In this document: positions 27,101-34,770 of the stretch, piece by piece
How positions within the stretch are numbered: position 1 is the stretch's first letter
Layout of the letters: the number at the start of each line of letters is the position of its first letter
Made by a program: the position numbers and the translations under genes
IMG/VR virus record: IMGVR_UViG_3300005527_000040
Coordinates: 96,726 to 160,725 of that record
Length of the DNA: 64,000 bases
From: a virus
Reading direction: 5' to 3' (one strand)
Notes under the pieces: model-generated
Databases searched by the model: none
Told to the model about the DNA's origin: nothing
What the model saw: the letters and a program-made list of their open reading frames with translations, nothing else

Positions 27101-28631
27101 CAAGGTTAGCCGTGCCTTGAACAGCCTGCTGACCTGCGCGCACTACCCGTCCGAACATGTTTGCTGCAACGTTGGCAGCCTTTTCCTGCTCTTCAGGCGA
27201 CATCCGGTCCCAGTCTGGGAACACCGCACGCGCCAGCTTTACGGCGTCACCGGCGTAGCGTGGAGTAACCGGCGTGTACGCAAGGCTGGCCTTCTTGTCC
27301 CGGTTTGCCAGGTACAAGCCCGTTCCGCCTGCTGCGAGTAAGCCTCCTCCTACTACAAGCGGCGCATAACCGCCGGATCCGGTTGCCGGGGCAGCAGCTG
27401 GAGTTGCGGCCGGGGCAGCCGCTGGTACCGCCGCTGCACCTTCGTTTTGAACGGCTTGCCGAACGACGTTTTCCCGCTGCGTCCTGCTGGCCTCTGCCGC
27501 TGCGTTAAGATTCTGCTCAAACGCCTTTTCAGCTGCACGCGCCTGATTCTTAGCCTCTGCATCGATAACTGCGGCAGCTTGGGGAAAGCGACCGCTAGGG
27601 TCTGTTGCTGAGGGTCGAAGCGGGGGTGTGTAGCCCGTAGTAGGCGCAGGTTGAACCGGTGTCGCGGCAGGAGACACGCCCCGGGTTGGCGCGGGGATTG
27701 GTGCATGCCCTTGTCCGGCTAGATCTCGCCCACGAGCACGGTAGCCCTGCTGAATCGCGTCGTCTAGGTCCTTGCCACCACGAAGCCCCCCAACCACGTG
27801 CTCTATCGGGGCGCCGCGGCGGGTGCTCTGCGACAGCTCTCCTACAGCTTTGCGAGCGCCGGATACCCCACCCACTACGCGGCTGTTTGCGGCTTCGCGT
27901 GCCTGCTGGGCAATTGCGTTTGCAATGTCTGGCGTAACTTCGTGGCCAGCGGTGGCTAGGCGCTTGGTTAGCCCAGCGGCAACCCGCTTCTCAATATCGG
28001 CCGCAGAAATGGCCAGCTTGGTTACTTCTGCTTTCTTTGATCGCATTGTAGGCTTGCCCTTCTCGGCCGGAGCACGCTCAGGGAGGTTCTTCATGTTGGG
28101 AGTCTCGTCTGCCCATTCCTTCGCCTTCTCTTTTGAGAAGCCAGGAATATGGCCGCCGAATGCGGCGCGCTGCTGACGCTTGGACGTGAAGGGCATCTTA
28201 TTCTCCGAAATCTTTTGGCCGTGGTTCTTCTTATCGAGAACCTTACCCTTAAACTCTTCAACGCCCATCTCCCTCATCGAGCCGAAGAAGCGGGGGTCAT
28301 TATAGTGAGCTAGGTAAGCCGCCTTAGCCGCTTTGGCGTCCTTAAATCCGAGCATCACCTTCTGCTCGTCAAACCGCCTGAAGTCTGGCTTCTTCATCTG
28401 ATCGACGATGAACACGGAGCTGGAGTCGGTATCCGGGCCGACGTAGACATCGACGTGGTCGCCGTCAGTGCCCTCTGTGCGGCGGAAGTAGCCGTAGTCG
28501 TACTTCATCACCGTGGTGCCAGATTCTCCGCTGTGGGGATCCTTCCAATGGCGCGACGACCCTCGCGGGTTTTCGATAGAAATATCGAACCCGTAGAGCT
28601 TTACCCTCTTTTTTATCGGATGTGCGGCCAT
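24198..28631 (-). CDS. 1477-residue InPase-headed giant protein
   Basis: Residues ~1-135 match the InPase (predicted inorganic-pyrophosphatase-like) domain found at the front of phage and plasmid polyvalent proteins: HWKDPHSGES, YDYGYFRRTEGTDGDHVDVY, FIVDQMK...FDEQKVMLGF. A short KRQQRAAFGGHIPGF segment follows (~150). The remainder is Ala/Pro-rich and disordered with three hydrophobic segments (~417-440, 629-650, 1423-1447) and poly-Pro near the C-terminus. A module recurs at ~461-500 (FPDWDRMSPEEQEKAAN) and ~913-950 (YPDWEYMTNEEQEKIAK). Size and membrane segments suit a virion-associated or injected protein; pyrophosphatase activity is not shown. No Shine-Dalgarno is visible. Confidence 0.7.
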   Translation of the reverse strand: MAAHPIKKRVKLYGFDISIENPRGSSRHWKDPHSGESGTTVMKYDYGYFRRTEGTDGDHVDVYVGPDTDSSSVFIVDQMKKPDFRRFDEQKVMLGFKDAKAAKAAYLAHYNDPRFFGSMREMGVEEFKGKVLDKKNHGQKISENKMPFTSKRQQRAAFGGHIPGFSKEKAKEWADETPNMKNLPERAPAEKGKPTMRSKKAEVTKLAISAADIEKRVAAGLTKRLATAGHEVTPDIANAIAQQAREAANSRVVGGVSGARKAVGELSQSTRRGAPIEHVVGGLRGGKDLDDAIQQGYRARGRDLAGQGHAPIPAPTRGVSPAATPVQPAPTTGYTPPLRPSATDPSGRFPQAAAVIDAEAKNQARAAEKAFEQNLNAAAEASRTQRENVVRQAVQNEGAAAVPAAAPAATPAAAPATGSGGYAPLVVGGGLLAAGGTGLYLANRDKKASLAYTPVTPRYAGDAVKLARAVFPDWDRMSPEEQEKAANVAANMFGRVVRAGQQAVQGTANLAGRAVQGTKNVAHAAGDALAAGSARSAASFKAGLQGTSLTPQQLSNITQDVKATRAGDRLMSGGHVKYEGGSRVPAAAPPPVPGAAVPPPPPAAAAGAAPAAAAPAGAPAAAAAEGGGFKLPWWVTPTVGLAGVGAGMYMTKQNSAYGSGQAAKVGGTQLDAFIELNLARISSGQDIDFGSLKIASLVQPAKRNGERNGVGDDIPPVTDFAASIQGDNIKAAKDSERAEFIADRLDDVGIAALAAPSIAQFAGEKMEHASDPRIKAMGAAIHGAGKKMKDYHLQEIGGLALVAPGVIKPVSRGIDRLLPGGKKPEDYVPAEAPKTASRKSVLSEHNDPPGYMMVSNLKRLADQSKRLSGAVSVRDNAEPWVESKIDRASEAIDAVHDYMKYKSKEKKANAALAMRQAVKVAQIMYPDWEYMTNEEQEKIAKGIARQALGALKDVGREFADDAIHFGRQGRNFVSGKAKQLGAEVQALRSGEGLAGAKVRGPEAASKEVARLKAQDTARDTLKREMADAADRNKLEAATAKDQARIQQRKDQLDQQFAGRSDVKPGTRAAERQARERAAIEREEQAAAARKTQRESEAAQRSKQREQNPVTGSPEYKAKLDKAEAARAAARAEDKKLVDEVKKEVSGRGAAEAAEVRKARQALGWEKAPPAPKTSPATAPATTPAATPAAAPAAKPAAKPPATPAARPAEPSQAEVLAKGQADAAAKETRRAEALRASQDRMRREAIGNEATQVAPRPAPSSLPKPDPGQMSPQVESLLANLESKAVTQEAGRVPELSELVRASGASSAPARAQLPVTPGPALPPGFSLENQTGRVVAPPPPPAAAARPVPPPPPPPQRAAPPPPPPPPPPPQQSAGVAPPPPPAPAAASPAATPVAATGAATPVAPAGQPAAPEAPKQPGFLRRNAIPIAGGAAALGLGGLAVGAGHMLNQTQMAQEESQTSRPLAAPAYQGAGRAF

Positions 28632-28698
28632 GCCAATGCGGTGCCCAGCATAACACAGGCTTACGCCAAGCTAAAAGCCCAAGAAACCCGCTATTCCC

Positions 28699-28706
28699 CC
28701 TATAAG
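28699..28706 (+). promoter_or_regulatory. TATAAG-type phage promoter, leaderless class
   Basis: CCTATAAG, CTATTG, ATG of the 28713 gene: the 6-nt spacing seen at 882 and 4499. Confidence 0.65.
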
Positions 28707-28712
28707 CTATTG

Positions 28713-29375
28713 ATGAGCACCAATGTCTCGCTCAACAGCGGTAACCCCGCCGGCGCGGAGCCGAACTCCGCGATTGCCTGCATTGCGGGCATTTTCGTGC
28801 AGGTCTACGGTATTGCCGCCTCGAAGTTCGAGACGGCGTGTGTCGGAACGCGGGTAGCGTTCCCGATGCAACAATTCGTCCAGGAGTTTGTCGCCCAGGC
28901 GGTGAACTCCTGGAAGGGCCCCGATCGGGCGCCCGGGCAGCACTTCATCCAGCTGAAGCTGAACGAGTACATGCTGGGGAAGTTCCTTAGCGGGGTCGGG
29001 CGCCGGACGACAGACCCAAAGGAATACTTCCCCGCTCTGTGGAGGGGAGAAGTGGTTCTGCTCGGCCGGCGAAAGCTGGCCGAACCCACCACTGGAGTGG
29101 CAGTGATCGTGTACACCCGCGAGGCGTACCTCAACGATCCACAGATCGACGAGGCGGGAAGGCGGTGGCTGGACCCGAGGACGACCCACGTCCTTGTGGA
29201 CGTCCTCGCATTCTCGAACACGATCGGCTCCCCGCAGCTTAGCCCGCACCGCTTCGTGCGGAACATGGCTGGCGGCAACAATACCCAGCTCACGGCAAGC
29301 GCCGACGAGCTTCGAGCAGAGGCTCAACTCGTGGCCGCGTACGATGCGAGCTACGTCACGGTCGGCGACGACTGA
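28713..29375 (+). CDS. hypothetical protein, leaderless
   Basis: 220 residues starting MSTNVSLNSGNPAGAEPNSA. Alpha/beta with helix FVQEFVAQAVNSWKG, a strand-rich EVVLLGRRKLAEPTTGVAVI, and an acidic C-terminus. The frame upstream of this ATG is shadow of the giant gene. No Shine-Dalgarno; the TATAAG box is 6 nt away. A minus-strand open frame covers the same bases but lacks promoter and terminator signals. Function unknown. Confidence 0.7.
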   Translation: MSTNVSLNSGNPAGAEPNSAIACIAGIFVQVYGIAASKFETACVGTRVAFPMQQFVQEFVAQAVNSWKGPDRAPGQHFIQLKLNEYMLGKFLSGVGRRTTDPKEYFPALWRGEVVLLGRRKLAEPTTGVAVIVYTREAYLNDPQIDEAGRRWLDPRTTHVLVDVLAFSNTIGSPQLSPHRFVRNMAGGNNTQLTASADELRAEAQLVAAYDASYVTVGDD

Positions 29376-29381
29376 CCACAC

Positions 29382-29422
29382 CGCCCGCTCCCCGGCTTCG
29401 GCCGGGTTGAGCGGGCGTTCTC
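29382..29422 (+). terminator. intrinsic terminator
   Basis: CGCCCGCTC/GAGCGGGCG outer stem, CCCGGC-TTCG-GCCGGG inner stem, TTCTCTT tail. Confidence 0.9.
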
Positions 29423-29446
29423 TTGCCTAGTAATACCGCGTTTTCC

Positions 29447-29454
29447 CCTATAAG
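29447..29454 (+). promoter_or_regulatory. TATAAG-type phage promoter, short-leader class
   Basis: CCTATAAG, CATGT, GGAGG, ATG at 29470. Confidence 0.6.
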
Positions 29455-29469
29455 CATGTGGAGGAAACT

Positions 29470-29610
29470 ATGCGACGAAACCGACGATTGGCTGACCTGG
29501 CGCGTGAGCGTCAGGCAGCGGAAGTTCGTGAGGAGGTCAAGCAAATCGCGCTTGGCCTCCTCGCGCTCGTAGGGCTGCTGGCCACATCGTGGCTAGCGGC
29601 GTTTATCTGA
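29470..29610 (+). CDS. 46-residue single-span membrane protein
   Basis: MRRNRRLADLARERQAAEVR followed by a helix and a hydrophobic segment LGLLALVGLLATSWLAAFI. GGAGG precedes the ATG, and a terminator follows directly, so it is a real single-gene unit despite its size. Residues 7-16 (LADLARERQA) are shared with the ADP-ribosyltransferase at 30507, encoded by an identical 31-nt stretch. Positive-inside topology suggests the shared peptide is cytoplasmic. Confidence 0.7.
   Translation: MRRNRRLADLARERQAAEVREEVKQIALGLLALVGLLATSWLAAFI
29487..29517 (+). repeat. 31-nt exact repeat, copy 1
   Basis: Identical over 31 nt to 30614..30644, in the same reading frame in two otherwise unrelated genes; encodes LADLARERQA. 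Confidence 0.85.
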
Positions 29611-29645
29611 AAGATGGGGAGCCTAACAGGCTCCCCATCTTTTTT
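29611..29645 (+). terminator. intrinsic terminator
   Basis: AAGATGGGGAGCC/GGCTCCCCATCTT, 13 bp, 5-nt loop, TTTTT tail. Confidence 0.92.
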
Positions 29646-29684
29646 GCTTTGCTATCTGTATCCAGACCTAGGTAAACCAAACGT

Positions 29685-29879
29685 ATGAGTCGTTCAGAAC
29701 GCGAGCGGTCCCTTCTTCGTCGGCTACTTGCTATTGCTGTTCACCGGCTTGGTGGGGAAATGCGGGTCACCAAAGAAGAGGTCTTTACCGGCACTTGGGA
29801 GCTGGGGATGGACCACGCAACTCTCCCAACAGTGGTTACCGGATTTCGTGTAGCTTCTAAAGATCGTGATACTCTGTAG
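29685..29879 (+). CDS. small hypothetical protein
   Basis: 64 residues, MSRSERERSLLRRLLAIAVH... Arg-rich N-terminal helix then a short MRVTKEEVFTGTWELGM strand region. No TATAAG box; ribosome site weak. Unknown. Confidence 0.5.
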   Translation: MSRSERERSLLRRLLAIAVHRLGGEMRVTKEEVFTGTWELGMDHATLPTVVTGFRVASKDRDTL

Positions 29880-29887
29880 ATAGGCCG

Positions 29888-29980
29888 GTGAGCAGTTTCT
29901 GCTGCTTCCTGCTCTTTACCGACCCCGAAGCAGAGCAGCGTCAGGGGAAAGACGGCCACCCTTTAGGAGCGCACCTGTGA
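29888..29980 (+). CDS. possible 30-residue mini-protein
   Basis: GTG-started frame VSSFCCFLLFTDPEAEQRQG... whose TGA overlaps the GTG of the next gene (GTGA). Supported only by this coupling and by filling the gap. Confidence 0.25.
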   Translation: MSSFCCFLLFTDPEAEQRQGKDGHPLGAHL

Positions 29981-30165
29981 ACGTCACACGCACCGTCTGG
30001 TACATCAGCTCAGACGAAACGGGAAAGCTGGGCCCGTTTTCTACTCAAGAGCAAGCCTACAGCGCGATCCGCAAAGATCTTTACGCAAGCACAGATCTAG
30101 CAAAGCGCCCATCTAACGTAGTCTTGTGGCCCGAGTACGTATCGAGCGCAGACCCAAAGGGATGA
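29977..30165 (+). CDS. small hypothetical protein, GTG start
   Basis: 62 residues, NVTRTVWYISSDETGKLGPF...; aromatic beta-rich N-terminus of the GYF/SH3-like kind (LGPFSTQEQAYSAIRKD). AGGAG lies 9 nt before the GTG. Followed by T-rich DNA and the next promoter. Unknown. Confidence 0.55.
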   Translation: MNVTRTVWYISSDETGKLGPFSTQEQAYSAIRKDLYASTDLAKRPSNVVLWPEYVSSADPKG

Positions 30166-30181
30166 AATAGCGCTCCTTTTT

Positions 30182-30190
30182 GCCTATCAG
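30182..30190 (+). promoter_or_regulatory. TATCAG-type phage promoter for the ART operon
   Basis: TTTTT then GCCTATCAG, 7 nt, AAAGGA, ATG at 30211. Confidence 0.65.
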
Positions 30191-30210
30191 TAGGTAGAAA
30201 GGAACGCAAA

Positions 30211-30510
30211 ATGTGCATCCTAAACGATAGCGAGAAGGCCGCGGTATCCGCCGCGGTCACCACCATCCTGGAGAAGGGTCTGCCCTTCACGGGTCAGTCG
30301 GTCACGCACGAGTTGCGTGACCGGGGCGTCAACCTCCCTCACAGGGAGATTTCCTCGTACACGCGGGAGATCTTCAACGGCGGAAAGATGCCTGGGTGGG
30401 CTTCCACCCAGGTCGTCCCGGGCCTTGGCCCGGTGATGTACTTCCCGGTCCCGCCGCGTAGCGCGGCGGGGATGGCGGCGGCGAAGCTTCGAAAGAAGCT
30501 GGTCCCGTGA
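30211..30510 (+). CDS. small protein co-translated with the ADP-ribosyltransferase
   Basis: 99 residues. MCILNDSEKAAVSAAVTTIL then FTGQSVTHELRDRGVNLPHR, a helix-turn-helix-like pair, then a strand region (GWASTQVVPGLGPVMYFPVP) and a basic C-terminus. Its TGA overlaps the GTG of the transferase, so the two are coupled. It could be a regulator, antitoxin or targeting partner of the enzyme; none is demonstrated. Confidence 0.65.
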   Translation: MCILNDSEKAAVSAAVTTILEKGLPFTGQSVTHELRDRGVNLPHREISSYTREIFNGGKMPGWASTQVVPGLGPVMYFPVPPRSAAGMAAAKLRKKLVP

Positions 30511-31244
30511 AGGACGGTAAGCGGCGGAGGGCGAAAGCCCTCCGCCTGCCGGACGTCCCTGCTTTCCAGCAGGCGGCGTCCATCCCGGTTAAGGGCCAAA
30601 AGCCCCTAACCCAATTGGCTGACCTGGCGCGTGAGCGTCAGGCAAAGGGGCAGGAGGACATGCGTGAGGTGCGCAGGCACCTTGAGCGCTCCTGCAAAGA
30701 GTCGGGACGGCAGAACACCTACGGCGGGGTGTTCTACAGCTACACAGTGTTGAAGCCGAAAGAGCTTCGGCACAAGGACAACACGCGGACCCTGTGGCAC
30801 GGTACCGCCCTCGGCAATCTCACGAACATCCTAATACACGGATTTAGGCCTTCGTACGGAGGGCTTATGGGTCCGGGCGTCTACTTCGGTGGACGCCAGA
30901 AAGCCGAGGCATACTCAAGGGCCCCCCTCGGAGCGCTGCTCCGATGCGAGGTGGCCCTGGGCCGAACAGCGGATGCCGTTCCCTCGTGGGAGGACGCGCG
31001 CCCGCCGTACGACACCCTACACGGCGTGCCCGGCCAGACGCGCACGTATGGATCGTCCACCCTTCTTAACGAAGAATGGGCGGTCCTTGACCCTGCCCGA
31101 ATCTCCATTCACGAAATTCGGGTGTTCACTGCAAATCGAGGCGAGTGTGTCCGATGCGGACGCCTTGTCAGCGATGAGCACCTTCAGTCGAGGTGGTCAC
31201 CGCGCCACAAAGACTTCATCAGGCTTTGTGGCCACTGTCTGTGA
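30507..31244 (+). CDS. PARP-like ADP-ribosyltransferase with zinc ribbon
   Basis: Predicted to transfer ADP-ribose from NAD+ to a target. 245 residues. N-terminal linker carries LADLARERQA (residues 37-46). The catalytic core has the order of PARP/tankyrase enzymes: LWHGTALGNLTNILIHGF (H98), GPGVYFGGRQKAEAY (Y126) and NEEWAVLDPARI (E190), an H-Y-E triad. After the core, CVRCG...CGHC (C214, C217, C241, C244) forms a zinc ribbon. GTG start at 30507 overlaps the upstream stop. A short core with an added ribbon suggests binding of nucleic acid or a zinc-ribbon partner. Target and whether it makes mono- or poly-ADP-ribose are unknown. Confidence 0.88.
   Translation: MKDGKRRRAKALRLPDVPAFQQAASIPVKGQKPLTQLADLARERQAKGQEDMREVRRHLERSCKESGRQNTYGGVFYSYTVLKPKELRHKDNTRTLWHGTALGNLTNILIHGFRPSYGGLMGPGVYFGGRQKAEAYSRAPLGALLRCEVALGRTADAVPSWEDARPPYDTLHGVPGQTRTYGSSTLLNEEWAVLDPARISIHEIRVFTANRGECVRCGRLVSDEHLQSRWSPRHKDFIRLCGHCL
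30614..30644 (+). repeat. 31-nt exact repeat, copy 2
   Basis: Second copy of the 29487..29517 sequence, inside the N-terminal region of the ADP-ribosyltransferase gene and in the same frame. Confidence 0.85.
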
Positions 31245-31249
31245 GTAAT

Positions 31250-31287
31250 GCGGCCTCCCCATAACGGGTTGAGGCCGCTTTACTTTT
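31250..31287 (+). terminator. intrinsic terminator of the ART operon
   Basis: GCGGCCTC/GAGGCCGC outer stem with CCC/GGG inside, followed by TTTACTTTTG. Confidence 0.8.
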
Positions 31288-31311
31288 GCTCCCAAAATAT
31301 GCGCCGTTTCT

Positions 31312-31319
31312 CGTATAAG
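31312..31319 (+). promoter_or_regulatory. TATAAG-type promoter of the tRNA cluster
   Basis: CGTATAAG 21 nt before the first tRNA, with no ribosome site nearby. Its presence upstream of RNA genes supports a transcriptional rather than translational role for the motif. Confidence 0.65.
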
Positions 31320-31340
31320 ATATTGCGGCTCAACTTACCT

Positions 31341-31412
31341 GCCCCCTTAGCTCAGCGGTAGAGCAACGGTTTTGTAAACCGTAGGTCGTCGGTTCAATCC
31401 CGACAGGGGGCT
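31341..31412 (+). tRNA. tRNA-Thr (anticodon TGT)
   Basis: 72 nt; acceptor GCCCCCT/AGGGGGC, anticodon loop TTTGTAA, T-arm GTCGGTTCAATCCCGAC. No encoded CCA. Confidence 0.95.
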
Positions 31413-31415
31413 CAC

Positions 31416-31496
31416 GCGGGAATGGCGGAATGGCAGACGCACCAGACTTAGGATCTGGCGCCGAAAGGTGTGGGGGTTCAAATCCCCCTTCCCGCA
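31416..31496 (+). tRNA. tRNA-Leu (anticodon TAG)
   Basis: 81 nt with a short variable arm; acceptor GCGGGAA/TTCCCGC, anticodon loop CTTAGGA, T-arm GGGGGTTCAAATCCCCC. Confidence 0.95.
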
Positions 31497-31500
31497 CAAA

Positions 31501-31574
31501 CGGGGTGTAGCACAGCCTGGTAGTGCGCCAGCTTTGGGAGCTGGAAGTCGCAGGTTCAAATCCTGTCGCCCCGA
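31501..31574 (+). tRNA. tRNA-Pro (anticodon TGG)
   Basis: 74 nt; acceptor CGGGGTG/CGCCCCG, anticodon loop TTTGGGA, T-arm CAGGTTCAAATCCTG. Confidence 0.95.
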
Positions 31575-31588
31575 CTAAGGAGGTACGA

Positions 31589-32089
31589 ATGAAAAAGGTA
31601 ATGGCCGCTCTCATGATGGCCTACGCCTCTACCGCAGAGGCCCAAGACCCCTACGAACTAGGCCGCCGTGATCCTGCTCTGCTACTGGGCCAAGCTCTAG
31701 TAGCAGAAGCAGGATGGCGGTTTCACGCAGATCATCTTGCAATACCCTGGGTTATTTCTCGCCGGGCAACCCTTCCGGCATTTCGCCGAGCGTCAAACCC
31801 AGAGGTCGCAGCGTTGATTGCTTACGTCTCAGCGTTAAAGTGCGCCGATCCCGCTCGTCGGTGCGACTCTGAACGGCGTCGCCGGATGCGATCTATAACT
31901 TGGGGGATGCTTGACTCCCTTGCCCCGAAGATTGCGCGCGTTGCCCGTGATTGGTTCGGGGGTCGTCGTCATCCAGACCCCTGCCCAGACGCCTGGCACT
32001 GGGGCAGTGGGTTGCGCCGTTCGTCTCAGTTGGTTGTGCAGTGCGGGCACACGACTAACACGTTTCTTGGCAGACCCGTCTACCCGTAA
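31589..32089 (+). CDS. exported protein, paralogue of the 2148 gene
   Basis: 166 residues from the ATG at 31589, 6 nt after AAGGAGG. Signal peptide MKKVMAALMMAYASTAEA. Mature part: LLLGQALVAEAGWRFHADHLA (compare LLCINEAGWDCFESGDGLAI at 2148) and C-terminal WGSGLRRSSQLVVQCGHTTN then TFLGRP (compare ECGETANDFYCRP). The Glu-Ala-Gly-Trp helix recalls SleB/Hydrolase_2 wall hydrolases. It sits between two tRNA groups and probably shares their transcript. A cell-envelope function is likely; enzymatic activity is inference. Confidence 0.65.
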   Translation: MKKVMAALMMAYASTAEAQDPYELGRRDPALLLGQALVAEAGWRFHADHLAIPWVISRRATLPAFRRASNPEVAALIAYVSALKCADPARRCDSERRRRMRSITWGMLDSLAPKIARVARDWFGGRRHPDPCPDAWHWGSGLRRSSQLVVQCGHTTNTFLGRPVYP

Positions 32090-32109
32090 ACCGCCACACA
32101 AGGAACAGA

Positions 32110-32661
32110 ATGCCTAACTGGTGCAGCAACCACGGATTCATCAAGCTTCCAACCAACGCTTCTCCAGAGGCTGTTGCGGCGTTTAGGGCGCTAAGCAAGG
32201 TCGAGGATGACAAAGATGAGTGGTTCGCTAAGGTGCTCCCGTGCCCCCCTGAAGCGGACTGGTACGAATGGCGGATCCGCCGTTACGGAACAAAATGGGA
32301 CGTAACCCCCTCGCTTGCCGTAACGGACGACCAGATCAACTTCTCGTTTGAGTCGGCGTGGGCTCCGCCGCTAGAGTTTTTCAAGCATCTCGCGGAGACC
32401 TACGGCCTTCACTACCAGATTCAGTACTCAGAGCCGGGCTGCTGCTTCGGCGGTACCGCGTCCTACGACGGGGATTTTCAAGACAAGTACGTTGAAAACG
32501 AGGAGTACCTCGTCGCGGCGGTGGATGAGTTTGGCGAGCCGATAGAGTCGGTCCTGTGCGTCGAATCGTACGAGTCCTTCGACGCTTTCTGTAAGGCTCA
32601 CAAAATTGATAGCCCAAGGCTCAAAGACTTGGTACGAGATTATTACCGCGACCACAACTAG
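32110..32661 (+). CDS. Api92/DUF1281-like ferredoxin-fold protein
   Basis: 183 residues. MPNWCSNHGFIKLPTNASPE, YEWRIRRYGTKWDVTPSLAV, FSFESAWAPPLEFFKHLAET and SEPGCCFGGTASYDGD are the conserved blocks of the YubB/Api92-like family (DUF1281), common on plasmids and phages but of unknown biochemical role. ATG preceded by AAGGAACAGA. Encoded inside the tRNA cluster. Confidence 0.85.
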   Translation: MPNWCSNHGFIKLPTNASPEAVAAFRALSKVEDDKDEWFAKVLPCPPEADWYEWRIRRYGTKWDVTPSLAVTDDQINFSFESAWAPPLEFFKHLAETYGLHYQIQYSEPGCCFGGTASYDGDFQDKYVENEEYLVAAVDEFGEPIESVLCVESYESFDAFCKAHKIDSPRLKDLVRDYYRDHN

Positions 32662-32667
32662 TGGTCG

Positions 32668-32752
32668 GGAGGAGTGGCCGAGTGGTCTAAGGCAGCGGTT
32701 TTGAAAACCGCCGTGGGGCAACCCACCAGGGGTTCGAATCCCTTCTCCTCCG
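32668..32752 (+). tRNA. tRNA-Ser (anticodon TGA)
   Basis: 85 nt with a long variable arm (GTGGGGCAACCCAC); acceptor GGAGGAG/CTCCTCC, anticodon loop TTTGAAA, T-arm GGGGTTCGAATCCC. Confidence 0.95.
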
Positions 32753-32816
32753 CTCGTGCCCGCCAACCACGGGCTAGTGAGGGTGGAATACCTCATGAAG
32801 AAGCGGGGTGGTTCCC

Positions 32817-32859
32817 GTACGTTAGATAGCCCCGGACCCCGGAGGGGTCGGAGGCGTAC
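32817..32859 (+). other. structured spacer in the tRNA cluster
   Basis: GTACG/CGTAC outer helix enclosing a GC-rich hairpin centred on CCCCGGAGGGG. The 200-nt stretch 32753..32954 has no tRNA or convincing gene; it also holds two copies of TGGCTGGAGG 15 nt apart (32876 and 32891 region). Possibly a small RNA or degenerate tRNA DNA. Confidence 0.35.
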
Positions 32860-32954
32860 AGCCCGTAAGCGGTTCTGGCTGGAGGTCGTTTGGCTGGAGG
32901 CGAAAGCCGATGAAAGTCGAGTAGCCGACGAAGGTCAACCGTACTGTACGAACT

Positions 32955-33026
32955 GCGGGAATAGCTCAGGGGTAGAGCGCCTCCTTTACACGGAGGAAGT
33001 CGGGGGTTCGAAACCCTCTTCCCGTA
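32955..33026 (+). tRNA. tRNA-Val (anticodon TAC)
   Basis: 72 nt; acceptor GCGGGAA/TTCCCGT, anticodon loop CTTTACA, T-arm GGGGGTTCGAAACCCTC. Confidence 0.93.
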
Positions 33027-33030
33027 CTAA

Positions 33031-33116
33031 GCGAGCGTGGCGAAATCGGCATACGCAGCGGATTTAAAATCCGCGGGGCCGCAAGGCTCGTGAGGGTTCA
33101 AACCCCTCCGCTCGCA
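33031..33116 (+). tRNA. tRNA-Leu (anticodon TAA)
   Basis: 86 nt with long variable arm (GGGGCCGCAAGGCTC); acceptor GCGAGCG/CGCTCGC, anticodon loop TTTAAAA. Confidence 0.95.
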
Positions 33117-33123
33117 CTGTTAG

Positions 33124-33169
33124 TCCCGGTGAGGTGAGATCGGTCTCTCAGGAGACTAGGGCACCGGGA
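33124..33169 (+). other. two-tier hairpin between tRNAs
   Basis: Perfect 8-bp TCCCGGTG/CACCGGGA around a second perfect stem GTCTC-TCAG-GAGAC. It is too short and lacks the T-loop for a tRNA. Could be an RNA-processing structure or a small RNA. Confidence 0.4.
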
Positions 33170-33180
33170 TGGTAGTCAGA

Positions 33181-33315
33181 TGAGCAACGTCGCTGTTGAC
33201 CACGCGAAAGCGTACGAGGCGCGCCAAGTCGTCTGGCGAAAGGCACACCGGAAGGTGGCAAAGCCCAAGCCGTGGATATGCTGCACGGCATTAGGGATCG
33301 TAGATCAGTGGTAGA
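33181..33315 (+). CDS. possible 44-residue basic protein
   Basis: ATG frame MSNVAVDHAKAYEARQVVWR... continuing with HRKVAKPKPWICC and running 22 nt into the tRNA-Lys. Protein-like composition, but weak ribosome site and the tRNA overlap argue against it. Confidence 0.2.
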
Positions 33316-33365
33316 TCAGCGGGCTTTTAACCCGTAGGTCGTGGGTTCGATCCCCACCGGTCCCA
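33294..33365 (+). tRNA. tRNA-Lys (anticodon TTT)
   Basis: 72 nt; acceptor GGGATCG/CGGTCCC (one G-U), anticodon loop CTTTTAA, T-arm GTGGGTTCGATCCCCAC. Confidence 0.93.
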
Positions 33366-33369
33366 CTTC

Positions 33370-33440
33370 TCGGGGTTCGTCTAAGGGCAGGACATCGGCC
33401 TTTGAAGCCGCGAATGATGGTTCGATTCCATCACCCCGAA
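33370..33440 (+). tRNA. tRNA-Gln (anticodon TTG)
   Basis: 71 nt; acceptor TCGGGGT/ACCCCGA, anticodon loop CTTTGAA, T-arm GATGGTTCGATTCCATC. Same anticodon as the minus-strand tRNA at 17820, with an identical D-arm but different anticodon and T stems. Confidence 0.93.
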
Positions 33441-33455
33441 TCAGGTTACCACCTA

Positions 33456-33491
33456 ACGCGCACTAGCCCCTCCCTAGTGCGCGTTTCTTTT
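33456..33491 (+). terminator. terminator of the tRNA cluster
   Basis: ACGCGCACTAG/CTAGTGCGCGT, 11 bp, 7-nt loop, TTTCTTTT tail. Confidence 0.9.
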
Positions 33492-33514
33492 GCCCAAAAT
33501 TTAAGGGGTTTCCG

Positions 33515-33522
33515 CCTATAAG
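33515..33522 (+). promoter_or_regulatory. TATAAG-type phage promoter, short-leader class
   Basis: CCTATAAG, AAGAT, AGGAGG, ATG at 33538. Confidence 0.65.
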
Positions 33523-33537
33523 AAGATAGGAGGAAAC

Positions 33538-33732
33538 ATGCACCACAACGAGTTCAAGTGCGATACCTGTGGGTCCGAGATGAGCCTCGTTTTGTACGGG
33601 GCAGGCAACTGCCCCGGCTGCCCGGGAGATATGTCATGCGCGCTCGAGGCGCGCTGCGACCGGTGCAACCCGCCGCCACCGCCGAAGCCGCGGTACGTGC
33701 CGCCGCCGGAGCCCCCCACCGATTACTGGTGA
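33538..33732 (+). CDS. small zinc-ribbon protein
   Basis: 64 residues: HHNEFKCDTCGSEMSLVLYG, then NCPGCPGDMSC and ARCDRCNPPPPP. Three CxxC-type pairs and a Pro-rich tail ending PTDYW. Own promoter, AGGAGG and terminator. Unknown partner. Confidence 0.65.
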   Translation: MHHNEFKCDTCGSEMSLVLYGAGNCPGCPGDMSCALEARCDRCNPPPPPKPRYVPPPEPPTDYW

Positions 33733-33741
33733 GGGGCCGCG

Positions 33742-33780
33742 CGCCCTGCTCCCCGAAAGGGTTGAGCGGGGCGTTTCTTT
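33742..33780 (+). terminator. intrinsic terminator
   Basis: CGCCCTGCTC/GAGCGGGGCG with inner CCC-GAAA-GGG, tail TTTCTTTT. Confidence 0.85.
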
Positions 33781-33791
33781 TGCCAATACGG

Positions 33792-33799
33792 CCTATAAG
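33792..33799 (+). promoter_or_regulatory. TATAAG-type phage promoter, short-leader class
   Basis: CCTATAAG, CAGACGA, AGGAGGG, GTG at 33818. Confidence 0.6.
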
Positions 33800-33817
33800 C
33801 AGACGAAGGAGGGTTGA

Positions 33818-34000
33818 GTGTCTGCCCTAAAGAACTACTACAAAGCGTGTACCCGCGCGGCAATCGCAGTCGAAAACAATGACAAGGCTGAAGAGCTGGC
33901 GGCGCTGGAGCTGGTAAAAACTACGTGGAGTGAGTTACAGAAGGAGGATCCCAGACTCGCGAAGTTCCTCACGCAAACTGGGATTGACCCGCCAAAGTAA
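33818..34000 (+). CDS. small helical protein, GTG start
   Basis: 60 residues, SALKNYYKACTRAAIAVENN..., two amphipathic helices. GTG at 33818 is 7 nt after AGGAGGG. Last gene of the rightward group before the virion cassette. Unknown. Confidence 0.6.
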   Translation: MSALKNYYKACTRAAIAVENNDKAEELAALELVKTTWSELQKEDPRLAKFLTQTGIDPPK

Positions 34001-34001
34001 A

Positions 34002-34037
34002 ATAGGGCTGGACACATCGTGTCCAGCCCTATCTTTT
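34002..34037. terminator. bidirectional terminator between convergent blocks
   Basis: ATAGGGCTGGACA/TGTCCAGCCCTAT, 13 bp, with CTTTTT on the plus side and TTTTAC on the minus side. Separates the small-gene block from the tail genes. Confidence 0.92.
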
Positions 34038-34050
34038 TGCCTAGGTAAGC

Positions 34051-34770
34051 TCAGGCCATCTGCTCTAGCGTGATGTTCTGCACCGCGATCGGAATCGCTA
34101 GCTCAAACTGCACGGCAACCGACTCCTGAACGATGACGCCCTGCGCGTCTGTCGCAAAGGTGTGGTTGGGGATGTAGCAGCTCTCAAGGTAGAAAGCGCC
34201 GTAGGTCTTGAGGTTGGAGTCCTTGACCATGATCAGCAAGCCGATGGGCTGGCTAAACAGGTCCGAGGCAAGGTTGATGTAGAAGTTCTCGTAGCCCGGG
34301 GGCACAACGACGTTGTGCGGGTTAGGCATCGCCGCCGCACCCGGGTTCGGGAACACCGGGGGGATCTCCGTCGGCAGCTGCGTGTCCGTGTAGTAGGCAT
34401 AAAGCACCCGTAGGATGCTTGGGCCGTGGTACAGGATGCGCGAAAGGCCGAGCTGGCCAATCGTGCGGCCCGAGATGAAGTACGACCGCTCCGAGCCAAG
34501 CTCGAAGATACGGCTGAACTGCCGGTTGTGGCTAAGGTTGATGTTCTGCGTAACACCAATCGGGTAAACGATGGTGGACCCGCCCGCGGGGGTAGAAATC
34601 GCGGGTGTGAACCCAAGAACACCGCCTACCGAAGCCAGCCGTGACGGGCCAGCAAAGATTCCGCAGAAGGCGCCGGAGACGAACTGCCCGTCCACCATGC
34701 CCGGGCCTTCACCTCCCGTCTGGACGTAGTTCTCGTAGGGCTTCCAGTTAGCGTAACTAGCGTTAGCCAT
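34051..34770 (-). CDS. tail tube protein (probable)
   Basis: 239 residues immediately downstream of the sheath gene, the usual order sheath then tube. Beta-rich sequence with NINLSHNRQFSRIFELGSER, FISGRTIGQLGLSRILYHGP and a C-terminal VQFELAIPIAVQNITLEQM, fitting tube-fold proteins of contractile-tail phages. It would form the inner tube of the tail. AGGAGA precedes the ATG. Identified mainly by context and fold-like pattern. Confidence 0.7.
   Translation of the reverse strand: MANASYANWKPYENYVQTGGEGPGMVDGQFVSGAFCGIFAGPSRLASVGGVLGFTPAISTPAGGSTIVYPIGVTQNINLSHNRQFSRIFELGSERSYFISGRTIGQLGLSRILYHGPSILRVLYAYYTDTQLPTEIPPVFPNPGAAAMPNPHNVVVPPGYENFYINLASDLFSQPIGLLIMVKDSNLKTYGAFYLESCYIPNHTFATDAQGVIVQESVAVQFELAIPIAVQNITLEQMA

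What the first reader, a model, noticed from the sequence alone, without database searches (positions are those of the whole stretch)
30182..31287. Phage operon encoding a PARP-type ADP-ribosyltransferase with a zinc ribbon
The 30507 protein carries the order and spacing of PARP catalytic motifs (LWHG with H98, GVYFGG with Y126, NEEWAVLD with E190). The H-Y-E triad is the version associated with glutamate-dependent, potentially chain-elongating enzymes, unlike the R-S-E type of T4 Alt/ModA. A C-terminal CxxC...CxxC ribbon follows. It is translationally coupled to a 99-residue HTH-like protein and has its own TATCAG promoter and terminator. This could be a takeover enzyme that modifies host RNA polymerase, ribosome or nucleic acid, or a counter-defence factor. 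Motifs are seen; activity and target are inference.
Basis: partly seen in the sequence, partly recalled or inferred. Interest (0 to 1): 0.85.

Follow-up and report, generated by a model that had tools for sequence, protein, structure and literature searches.

The report
Phage PARP enzyme with DNA-binding partner
A large bacterial virus carries a compact gene for a PARP-type enzyme, which attaches ADP-ribose from NAD to other molecules, and the gene overlaps one for a small winged-helix protein; the same gene pair sits in a second, distantly related virus, so it looks like a travelling two-gene module of unknown target.

Summary
ORF 30507-31244 encodes a 245-aa protein with a PARP catalytic domain: Pfam PF00644 at 38.3 bits (cut-off 26.7), an AlphaFold model matching PARP4, PARP1 and PARP2, and H98-Y126-E190 invariant in 26 aligned phage, plasmid and bacterial PARPs. 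Phage PARPs are published (XacN1, Aeh1, phi4:1), so a PARP in a phage is not itself new.

This one is a minimal standalone form. It lacks the WGR and helical regulatory domains, has the shortest H-to-Y spacing of the set, and ends in a CxxC...CxxC tail. It overlaps by 4 nt (GTGA) a 99-aa protein modelled as a winged helix-turn-helix.

The new result is that the pair recurs. A 221,679-bp viral contig carries an overlapping homologous partner gene and standalone PARP (partner 37% identical, PARP 28%). No third copy turned up, and 20 relatives of the window phage lack the PARP.

The operon begins at a 17-nt-arm hairpin that contains a phage-wide CCTATCAG box and covers the ribosome-binding site. 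It ends in a strong hairpin before a tRNA array.

I favour a tightly regulated effector ADP-ribosyltransferase with its own wHTH regulator, resembling acr-aca or toxin-antitoxin operons. Activity, chain elongation, target and zinc binding are untested.

The parts
30183..30190 (+). CCTATCAG box, a phage-wide start-proximal motif
   Evidence: 16 copies in the 160,725-bp record against 3.25 expected; 9 within 60 nt upstream of an ORF start; a Shine-Dalgarno-like sequence follows 5-8 nt later at 10 of 16
30170..30207 (+). leader hairpin / dyad: arms 30170-30186 and 30191-30207 with a 4-nt loop, covering the CCTATCAG box and the Shine-Dalgarno AAAGGAA (30198-30204); candidate operator or translational switch
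   Evidence: arms 82% complementary; -22.3 kcal/mol, z = -5.35; among the three best upstream dyads of 190 ORFs, mononucleotide-shuffle p = 0.001
30211..30510 (+). 99-aa winged helix-turn-helix partner protein
   Evidence: AlphaFold pLDDT 80.9, pTM 0.68, order HHH-beta-beta-H; Foldseek best matches are winged-helix regulators at E about 1e-3; homologue in a second phage, BLASTP 5e-13
30507..31244 (+). 245-aa standalone PARP-type ADP-ribosyltransferase, GTG start overlapping the upstream stop (GTGA)
   Evidence: PF00644 at 1.3e-9; AlphaFold/Foldseek to PARP4, PARP1, PARP2, best E 9.8e-9
30759..31139 (+). ART catalytic core, residues 85-211; H98 codon 30798-30800, Y126 codon 30882-30884, E190 codon 31074-31076
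   Evidence: triad invariant in 26 of 26 aligned phage, plasmid and bacterial PARPs
31146..31238 (+). C-terminal CxxC-N23-CxxC tail (residues 214-244), candidate zinc ribbon
   Evidence: motifs at residues 214 and 241; model weak there, pLDDT about 55-70; CxxC pair not seen in the second family member
31243..31285 (+). terminator-like hairpin with a TTTACTTTT end
   Evidence: -26.9 kcal/mol, z = -5.5; missed by the scan

Best explanation
The locus is a self-contained two-gene phage module in a variable island next to a tRNA array. The second gene encodes a minimal PARP-clade ADP-ribosyltransferase that would use NAD+ to attach ADP-ribose to a host macromolecule, most likely one unit per site, during infection. 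The first gene encodes a small winged-helix protein, most likely the module's own regulator: it would act on the dyad at the leader (as a DNA operator or as an RNA hairpin over the ribosome-binding site), and because the PARP start overlaps its stop it would control both. SHOWN (by computation): fold and family of the enzyme, intact triad, winged-helix model of the partner, overlap of the genes, leader dyad and terminator-like hairpin, and recurrence of the pair in a second phage. INFERRED: catalytic activity, mono- rather than poly-ADP-ribosylation, regulatory role of the partner, and a takeover or counter-defence purpose.
For: PF00644 above its cut-off; PARP hits in the PDB by sequence and by fold; H-Y-E invariant in 26 sequences. 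Pair recurrence: viral contig IMGVR_UViG_3300017971_000190 has a standalone PARP (PF00644 49.2 bits) overlapped by a homologue of the 99-aa partner (37% identity, 5e-13); the contig was reached through a PARP DNA pattern and the partner alignment, which includes that contig's own protein, finds no further place. No other copy of the partner in either phage, so it is not a common HTH family of these phages that happens to lie there. Winged-helix model. Leader dyad and hairpin. Published parallel: HTH Aca proteins bind inverted repeats in core promoters of acr-aca operons (PMC9410906), and AcrIF11, a phage ART, was discovered as a neighbour of aca1 (PMC12421852).
Against: No activity data. The two PARPs share only about 28% identity and both have long branches, so their grouping (85/90) may be inflated. 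The second phage shows no comparable dyad at its leader (p = 0.52). Aca genes usually follow acr genes, whereas here the HTH gene comes first. The other 15 CCTATCAG sites lack this long dyad, so part of the element is a general phage signal.
Confidence: 0.5

Rival explanations
1. Toxin-antitoxin-like module: the PARP is a growth-inhibiting toxin and the upstream wHTH protein is its antitoxin and operon repressor, used by the phage for superinfection exclusion or for maintenance.
For: Small DNA-binding-type gene first, 4-nt overlap, effector second, own start and stop signals, sporadic distribution. ART toxins in phage TA pairs are described (ART-ARG, p0068-Dmd, Mod-Dmd; PMC9503650), and CmdTAC uses an ART toxin (PMC11618068).
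Against: No antitoxin family recognised (Pfam, PHROGs, NCBIfam, PADLOC). No Macro or ARG eraser domain found in this record, so neutralisation would have to be by binding.
Confidence: 0.27
2. The wHTH protein is a targeting subunit: it brings the PARP to DNA or to a nucleic-acid-bound target such as RNA polymerase, much as WGR domains couple other PARPs to DNA, and is not mainly a regulator.
For: The window PARP lacks the WGR domain present in many phage and bacterial relatives, while a conserved wHTH protein is made in coupling with it; both PARPs have lysine/arginine-rich N-termini.
Against: No evidence of a complex; the leader dyad is explained better by autoregulation.
Confidence: 0.15
3. 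A degenerate or non-functional gene: a captured PARP fragment without a role.
For: Absent from all 20 relatives examined, with the positive control found, and lacks the usual partner domains.
Against: Intact triad and frame, GC3 of 72% equal to that of core genes, dedicated signals, and the same pair in another phage.
Confidence: 0.05

Closest known systems
Phage WGR-PARPs of jumbo phages XacN1 (BBA65562.1) and RAS14, and of Klebsiella phage FBKp34
   Same: PARP catalytic domain with the same H-Y-E triad, encoded by large phages; published as viral PARPs (PMC7824862)
   Different: 423-428 aa with an N-terminal WGR domain, with or without the PARP regulatory domain; no annotated HTH neighbour in the stretches read; about 27-29% identical for XacN1 and RAS14
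Aeh1 / phiAS5 / pf16-type phage PARPs and head-associated fusions
   Same: ART domain with H-Y-E; Aeh1 and phi4:1 PARPs listed in PMC4245714
   Different: the PARP domain is embedded in large proteins, some beside or fused to portal genes; the window gene is a separate small protein
Standalone PARP of viral contig IMGVR_UViG_3300017971_000190 (L086:6576-7427)
   Same: standalone, basic N-terminus, LLNEEW motif, overlapping homologous wHTH gene upstream, near tRNA genes
   Different: about 28% identical, longer H-to-Y loop (39 against 28 residues), different Cys-containing C-terminus, a phage stretch of 42% GC against 57%
AcrIF11 and acr-aca operons
   Same: small phage ART that works as an anti-CRISPR, discovered beside an HTH regulator gene (PMC12421852)
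   Different: AcrIF11 is described as similar to diphtheria toxin by structure; aca genes usually lie downstream; no CRISPR target is known here

Membership tests
PARP (ARTD) catalytic domain family, PF00644 | profile match above the curated cut-off | tested here: met
   38.3 bits against 26.7; the match covers residues 88-159, the rest by alignment
PARP (ARTD) catalytic domain family, PF00644 | H-Y-E catalytic triad | tested here: met
   H98, Y126, E190 invariant in 26 of 26
PARP (ARTD) catalytic domain family, PF00644 | ART fold of the PARP type | tested here: met
   the 50 best PDB matches listed are PARP entries, best E 9.8e-9; TM-scores about 0.5, and the alignment given to AlphaFold held PARPs
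PARP (ARTD) catalytic domain family, PF00644 | poly-ADP-ribose synthesis | not testable with these tools
   needs biochemistry; H-Y-E alone does not decide it
DNA-dependent WGR-PARPs (PARP1/2/3-like, bacterial clade) | WGR domain and helical regulatory domain N-terminal to the catalytic domain | tested here: not met
   only PF00644 matched in the window protein, whereas WGR is found in four relatives run in the same library
T4 Alt/ModA/ModB R-S-E ADP-ribosyltransferases | R-S-E catalytic motif | tested here: not met
   H-Y-E aligned with PARPs; no PHROGs match
Type II toxin-antitoxin modules | two overlapping genes, small DNA-binding-type antitoxin and toxin | tested here: met
   GTGA overlap, wHTH model upstream
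Type II toxin-antitoxin modules | toxicity neutralised by the partner | not testable with these tools
   needs expression tests
acr-aca operons | HTH autorepressor with an inverted repeat in the core promoter | tested here: inconclusive
   dyad and wHTH present, but promoter not demonstrated, gene order reversed, and no comparable dyad in the second phage
Zinc ribbon | two CxxC knuckles in a beta-ribbon | tested here: inconclusive
   CxxC at 214 and 241; model pLDDT about 55-70 there

The most novel reading that the evidence does not exclude
A previously undescribed class of phage conflict module: a conserved wHTH-PARP pair in which the winged-helix protein controls or steers a minimal PARP, with a leader hairpin that the wHTH protein reads, carried as a cassette in tRNA-rich regions of unrelated phages.
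Probability: 0.35. Interest if true: 0.7.

Novelty: new variant of a known kind. Interest (0 to 1): 0.5.

Why it matters
Phage PARPs have been listed from genomes, but in the papers searched here I found none that reports a target or a partner for one. A PARP stripped of its sensor and autoinhibitory domains and found, in both known cases, with the same small wHTH partner offers a compact, expressible system for asking what bacterial viruses use PARP chemistry for and how they keep it in check.

Tried and rejected
Single-protein searches with the window PARP found no relative in 2.9 million viral contigs or in genome contigs; wider alignments gave only WGR-type or embedded PARPs. The second pair was found only after a DNA pattern for the GxxGPG[VI]Y motif; the other matches of that pattern were weak ARTs or chance. 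PHROGs, NCBIfam and PADLOC gave nothing. The partner had no relatives among phage or plasmid records at useful E-values. Macro and ARG erasers: none found in this record, a weak Macro match far away in the second phage. I considered the T4 Alt/ModA type and rejected it on motif. I considered that CCTATCAG might be an SD-sequestering RNA element everywhere, but single-site folds do not show a common structure. The metagenome collection was not searched.

Full report
1. What is there. The window is positions 96,726-160,725 of a 160,725-bp viral record. The record encodes a terminase, major head protein and tail sheath recognised by PHROGs, so it is a contractile-tailed phage. ORF 30507-31244 (245 aa, GTG start) and ORF 30211-30510 (99 aa) overlap by 4 nt as GTGA.

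2. The enzyme. Pfam PARP (PF00644) matches at 1.3e-9 and 38.3 bits, cut-off 26.7. phmmer against the PDB finds PARP2 at 6.4e-5 and many PARP1 entries below 1e-2. An AlphaFold model of residues 58-245, built on an alignment of 15 sequences that are themselves PARPs (so not independent of the family assignment), has pLDDT 75.9 with the core mostly above 80. All 50 Foldseek matches listed are PARP4, PARP1 or PARP2 entries, best E 9.8e-9, TM about 0.5. In an alignment of 26 phage, plasmid and bacterial PARPs, H98, Y126 and E190 do not vary. The spacing from H to Y is 28 residues, the shortest of the set (31-39 in the rest), so the loop over the NAD site is short. There is no WGR domain and no helical regulatory domain match, while relatives score for them in the same library. 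The C-terminus has CxxC at 214 and 241, a possible zinc ribbon, weakly modelled.

3. Phage PARPs are known. Perina et al. 2014 list Aeh1 and phi4:1 (PMC4245714). Iyer et al. 2021 list XacN1 BBA65562.1 (PMC7824862), and Iyer et al. 2022 place PARTs among the commonest viral ARTs (PMC9503650). In the phage collection 32 records match the RAS14 PARP domain. Those fetched are WGR-PARPs (XacN1, RAS14, FBKp34), PARP domains within long proteins (Aeh1, phiAS5, pf16, LysYB1), or of the phi4:1 type. None fetched has the window's architecture.

4. The pair recurs. A DNA pattern for GxxGPG[VI]Y brought in viral contig IMGVR_UViG_3300017971_000190, 221,679 bp. At L086:6576-7427 it encodes a 283-aa standalone PARP (PF00644 at 49.2 bits) with a basic N-terminus and the same LLNEEW motif. 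Directly upstream and overlapping it, at L086:6305-6628, is a 107-aa protein homologous to the window's 99-aa partner: 37% identity over 87 residues, E = 5e-13 for this single comparison, with FTG, ISSYxRExFNG and GPxxYFPxP conserved. Each phage has one copy of the partner and it is the one beside the PARP. That linkage in two phages of different GC (57% for this record, 42% for the 15-kb stretch of the other), both with tRNA genes nearby, is the main evidence for a functional pair. The tree groups the two PARPs at 85/90, with a long-branch warning.

5. The partner. AlphaFold gives three helices, a two-stranded wing and a fourth helix, pLDDT 80.9 and pTM 0.68, from two sequences. Foldseek's best matches are winged-helix regulators such as PadR-type Rv3488 and Zur, at E about 1e-3 to 1e-2. 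The match is to the general fold, so its DNA-binding role is inferred.

6. Signals. CCTATCAG occurs 16 times in the record (3.25 expected), 9 times within 60 nt of an ORF start, and in 10 of 16 a Shine-Dalgarno-like sequence follows 5-8 nt later. At this operon the box lies in a 17-nt-arm hairpin with z = -5.35 that includes the Shine-Dalgarno of the wHTH gene. Its dyad is among the three best of 190 upstream regions. If TATCAG is a -10 element the dyad would act as a DNA operator; if transcription starts further upstream it would be an RNA hairpin. The second phage has a sigma-70-like TTGACA-17-TAAATT by eye but no comparable dyad. A terminator-like hairpin with z = -5.5 follows the PARP gene, then tRNA genes.

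7. Distribution. Twenty relatives found by a conserved tail-region protein lack PF00644, with this record ringing in the same kind of search, and lack the partner. The three nearest share the flanking genes, but the interval between them carries other ORFs. So the module sits in a variable island. Absence claims rest on exact-pattern scans and on records that may be fragments, and the metagenome collection was not searched.

8. Mechanism. Most likely a minimal PARP-clade ART that ADP-ribosylates a host macromolecule, with its wHTH partner as regulator of the operon, perhaps also as antitoxin. The comparison with acr-aca operons (PMC9410906; PMC12421852) and with ART toxin systems (PMC9503650; PMC11618068) concerns how it might work and is not a membership claim. 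The poly- or mono-ADP-ribosylation question, the target, and even activity are open.

9. Verdict. A confirmed PARP gene, a new variant of a known kind. Its interest lies in the conserved wHTH-PARP pair and the leader hairpin, neither of which I found described, rather than in the presence of a PARP in a phage.

Noticed in passing
window 30183-30190 and 15 other sites in the 160,725-bp record: CCTATCAG is about five-fold over-represented and often sits just upstream of ORF starts and Shine-Dalgarno sequences; a phage-specific promoter or translation signal, rare or absent in the stretches of relatives examined.
   Followed up: partly
window 29882-29958: Rfam CyVA-1 RNA (RF02965), 47.7 bits over a gathering score of 41.4, just upstream of the operon; a candidate sRNA family, here in a phage.
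   Followed up: partly
window 28631-34051: Variable island between a 1477-aa minus-strand gene and a conserved tail-region gene; its content differs in the three nearest relatives.
   Followed up: partly
window 31330-31614 (minus strand): ORF reading LVGATGFEPATSSSQS... is the antisense of the tRNA genes, a well-known kind of spurious gene call.
   Followed up: no
L094 (G021:C1:219074-219238): Weak Macro domain match (21-22 bits) in the second phage, about 207 kb from its PARP on the linear record.
   Followed up: no
L086:8803-10320: 505-aa protein of CGDGxxxxxExCDDxN-type cysteine repeats just downstream of the second pair; by memory such repeats are common in Myxococcota and kin, a possible host hint.
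   Followed up: no
L037, L039, L041, L042: PARP domains at the C-terminus of very long or portal-like phage proteins, possibly packaged and injected versions.
   Followed up: no
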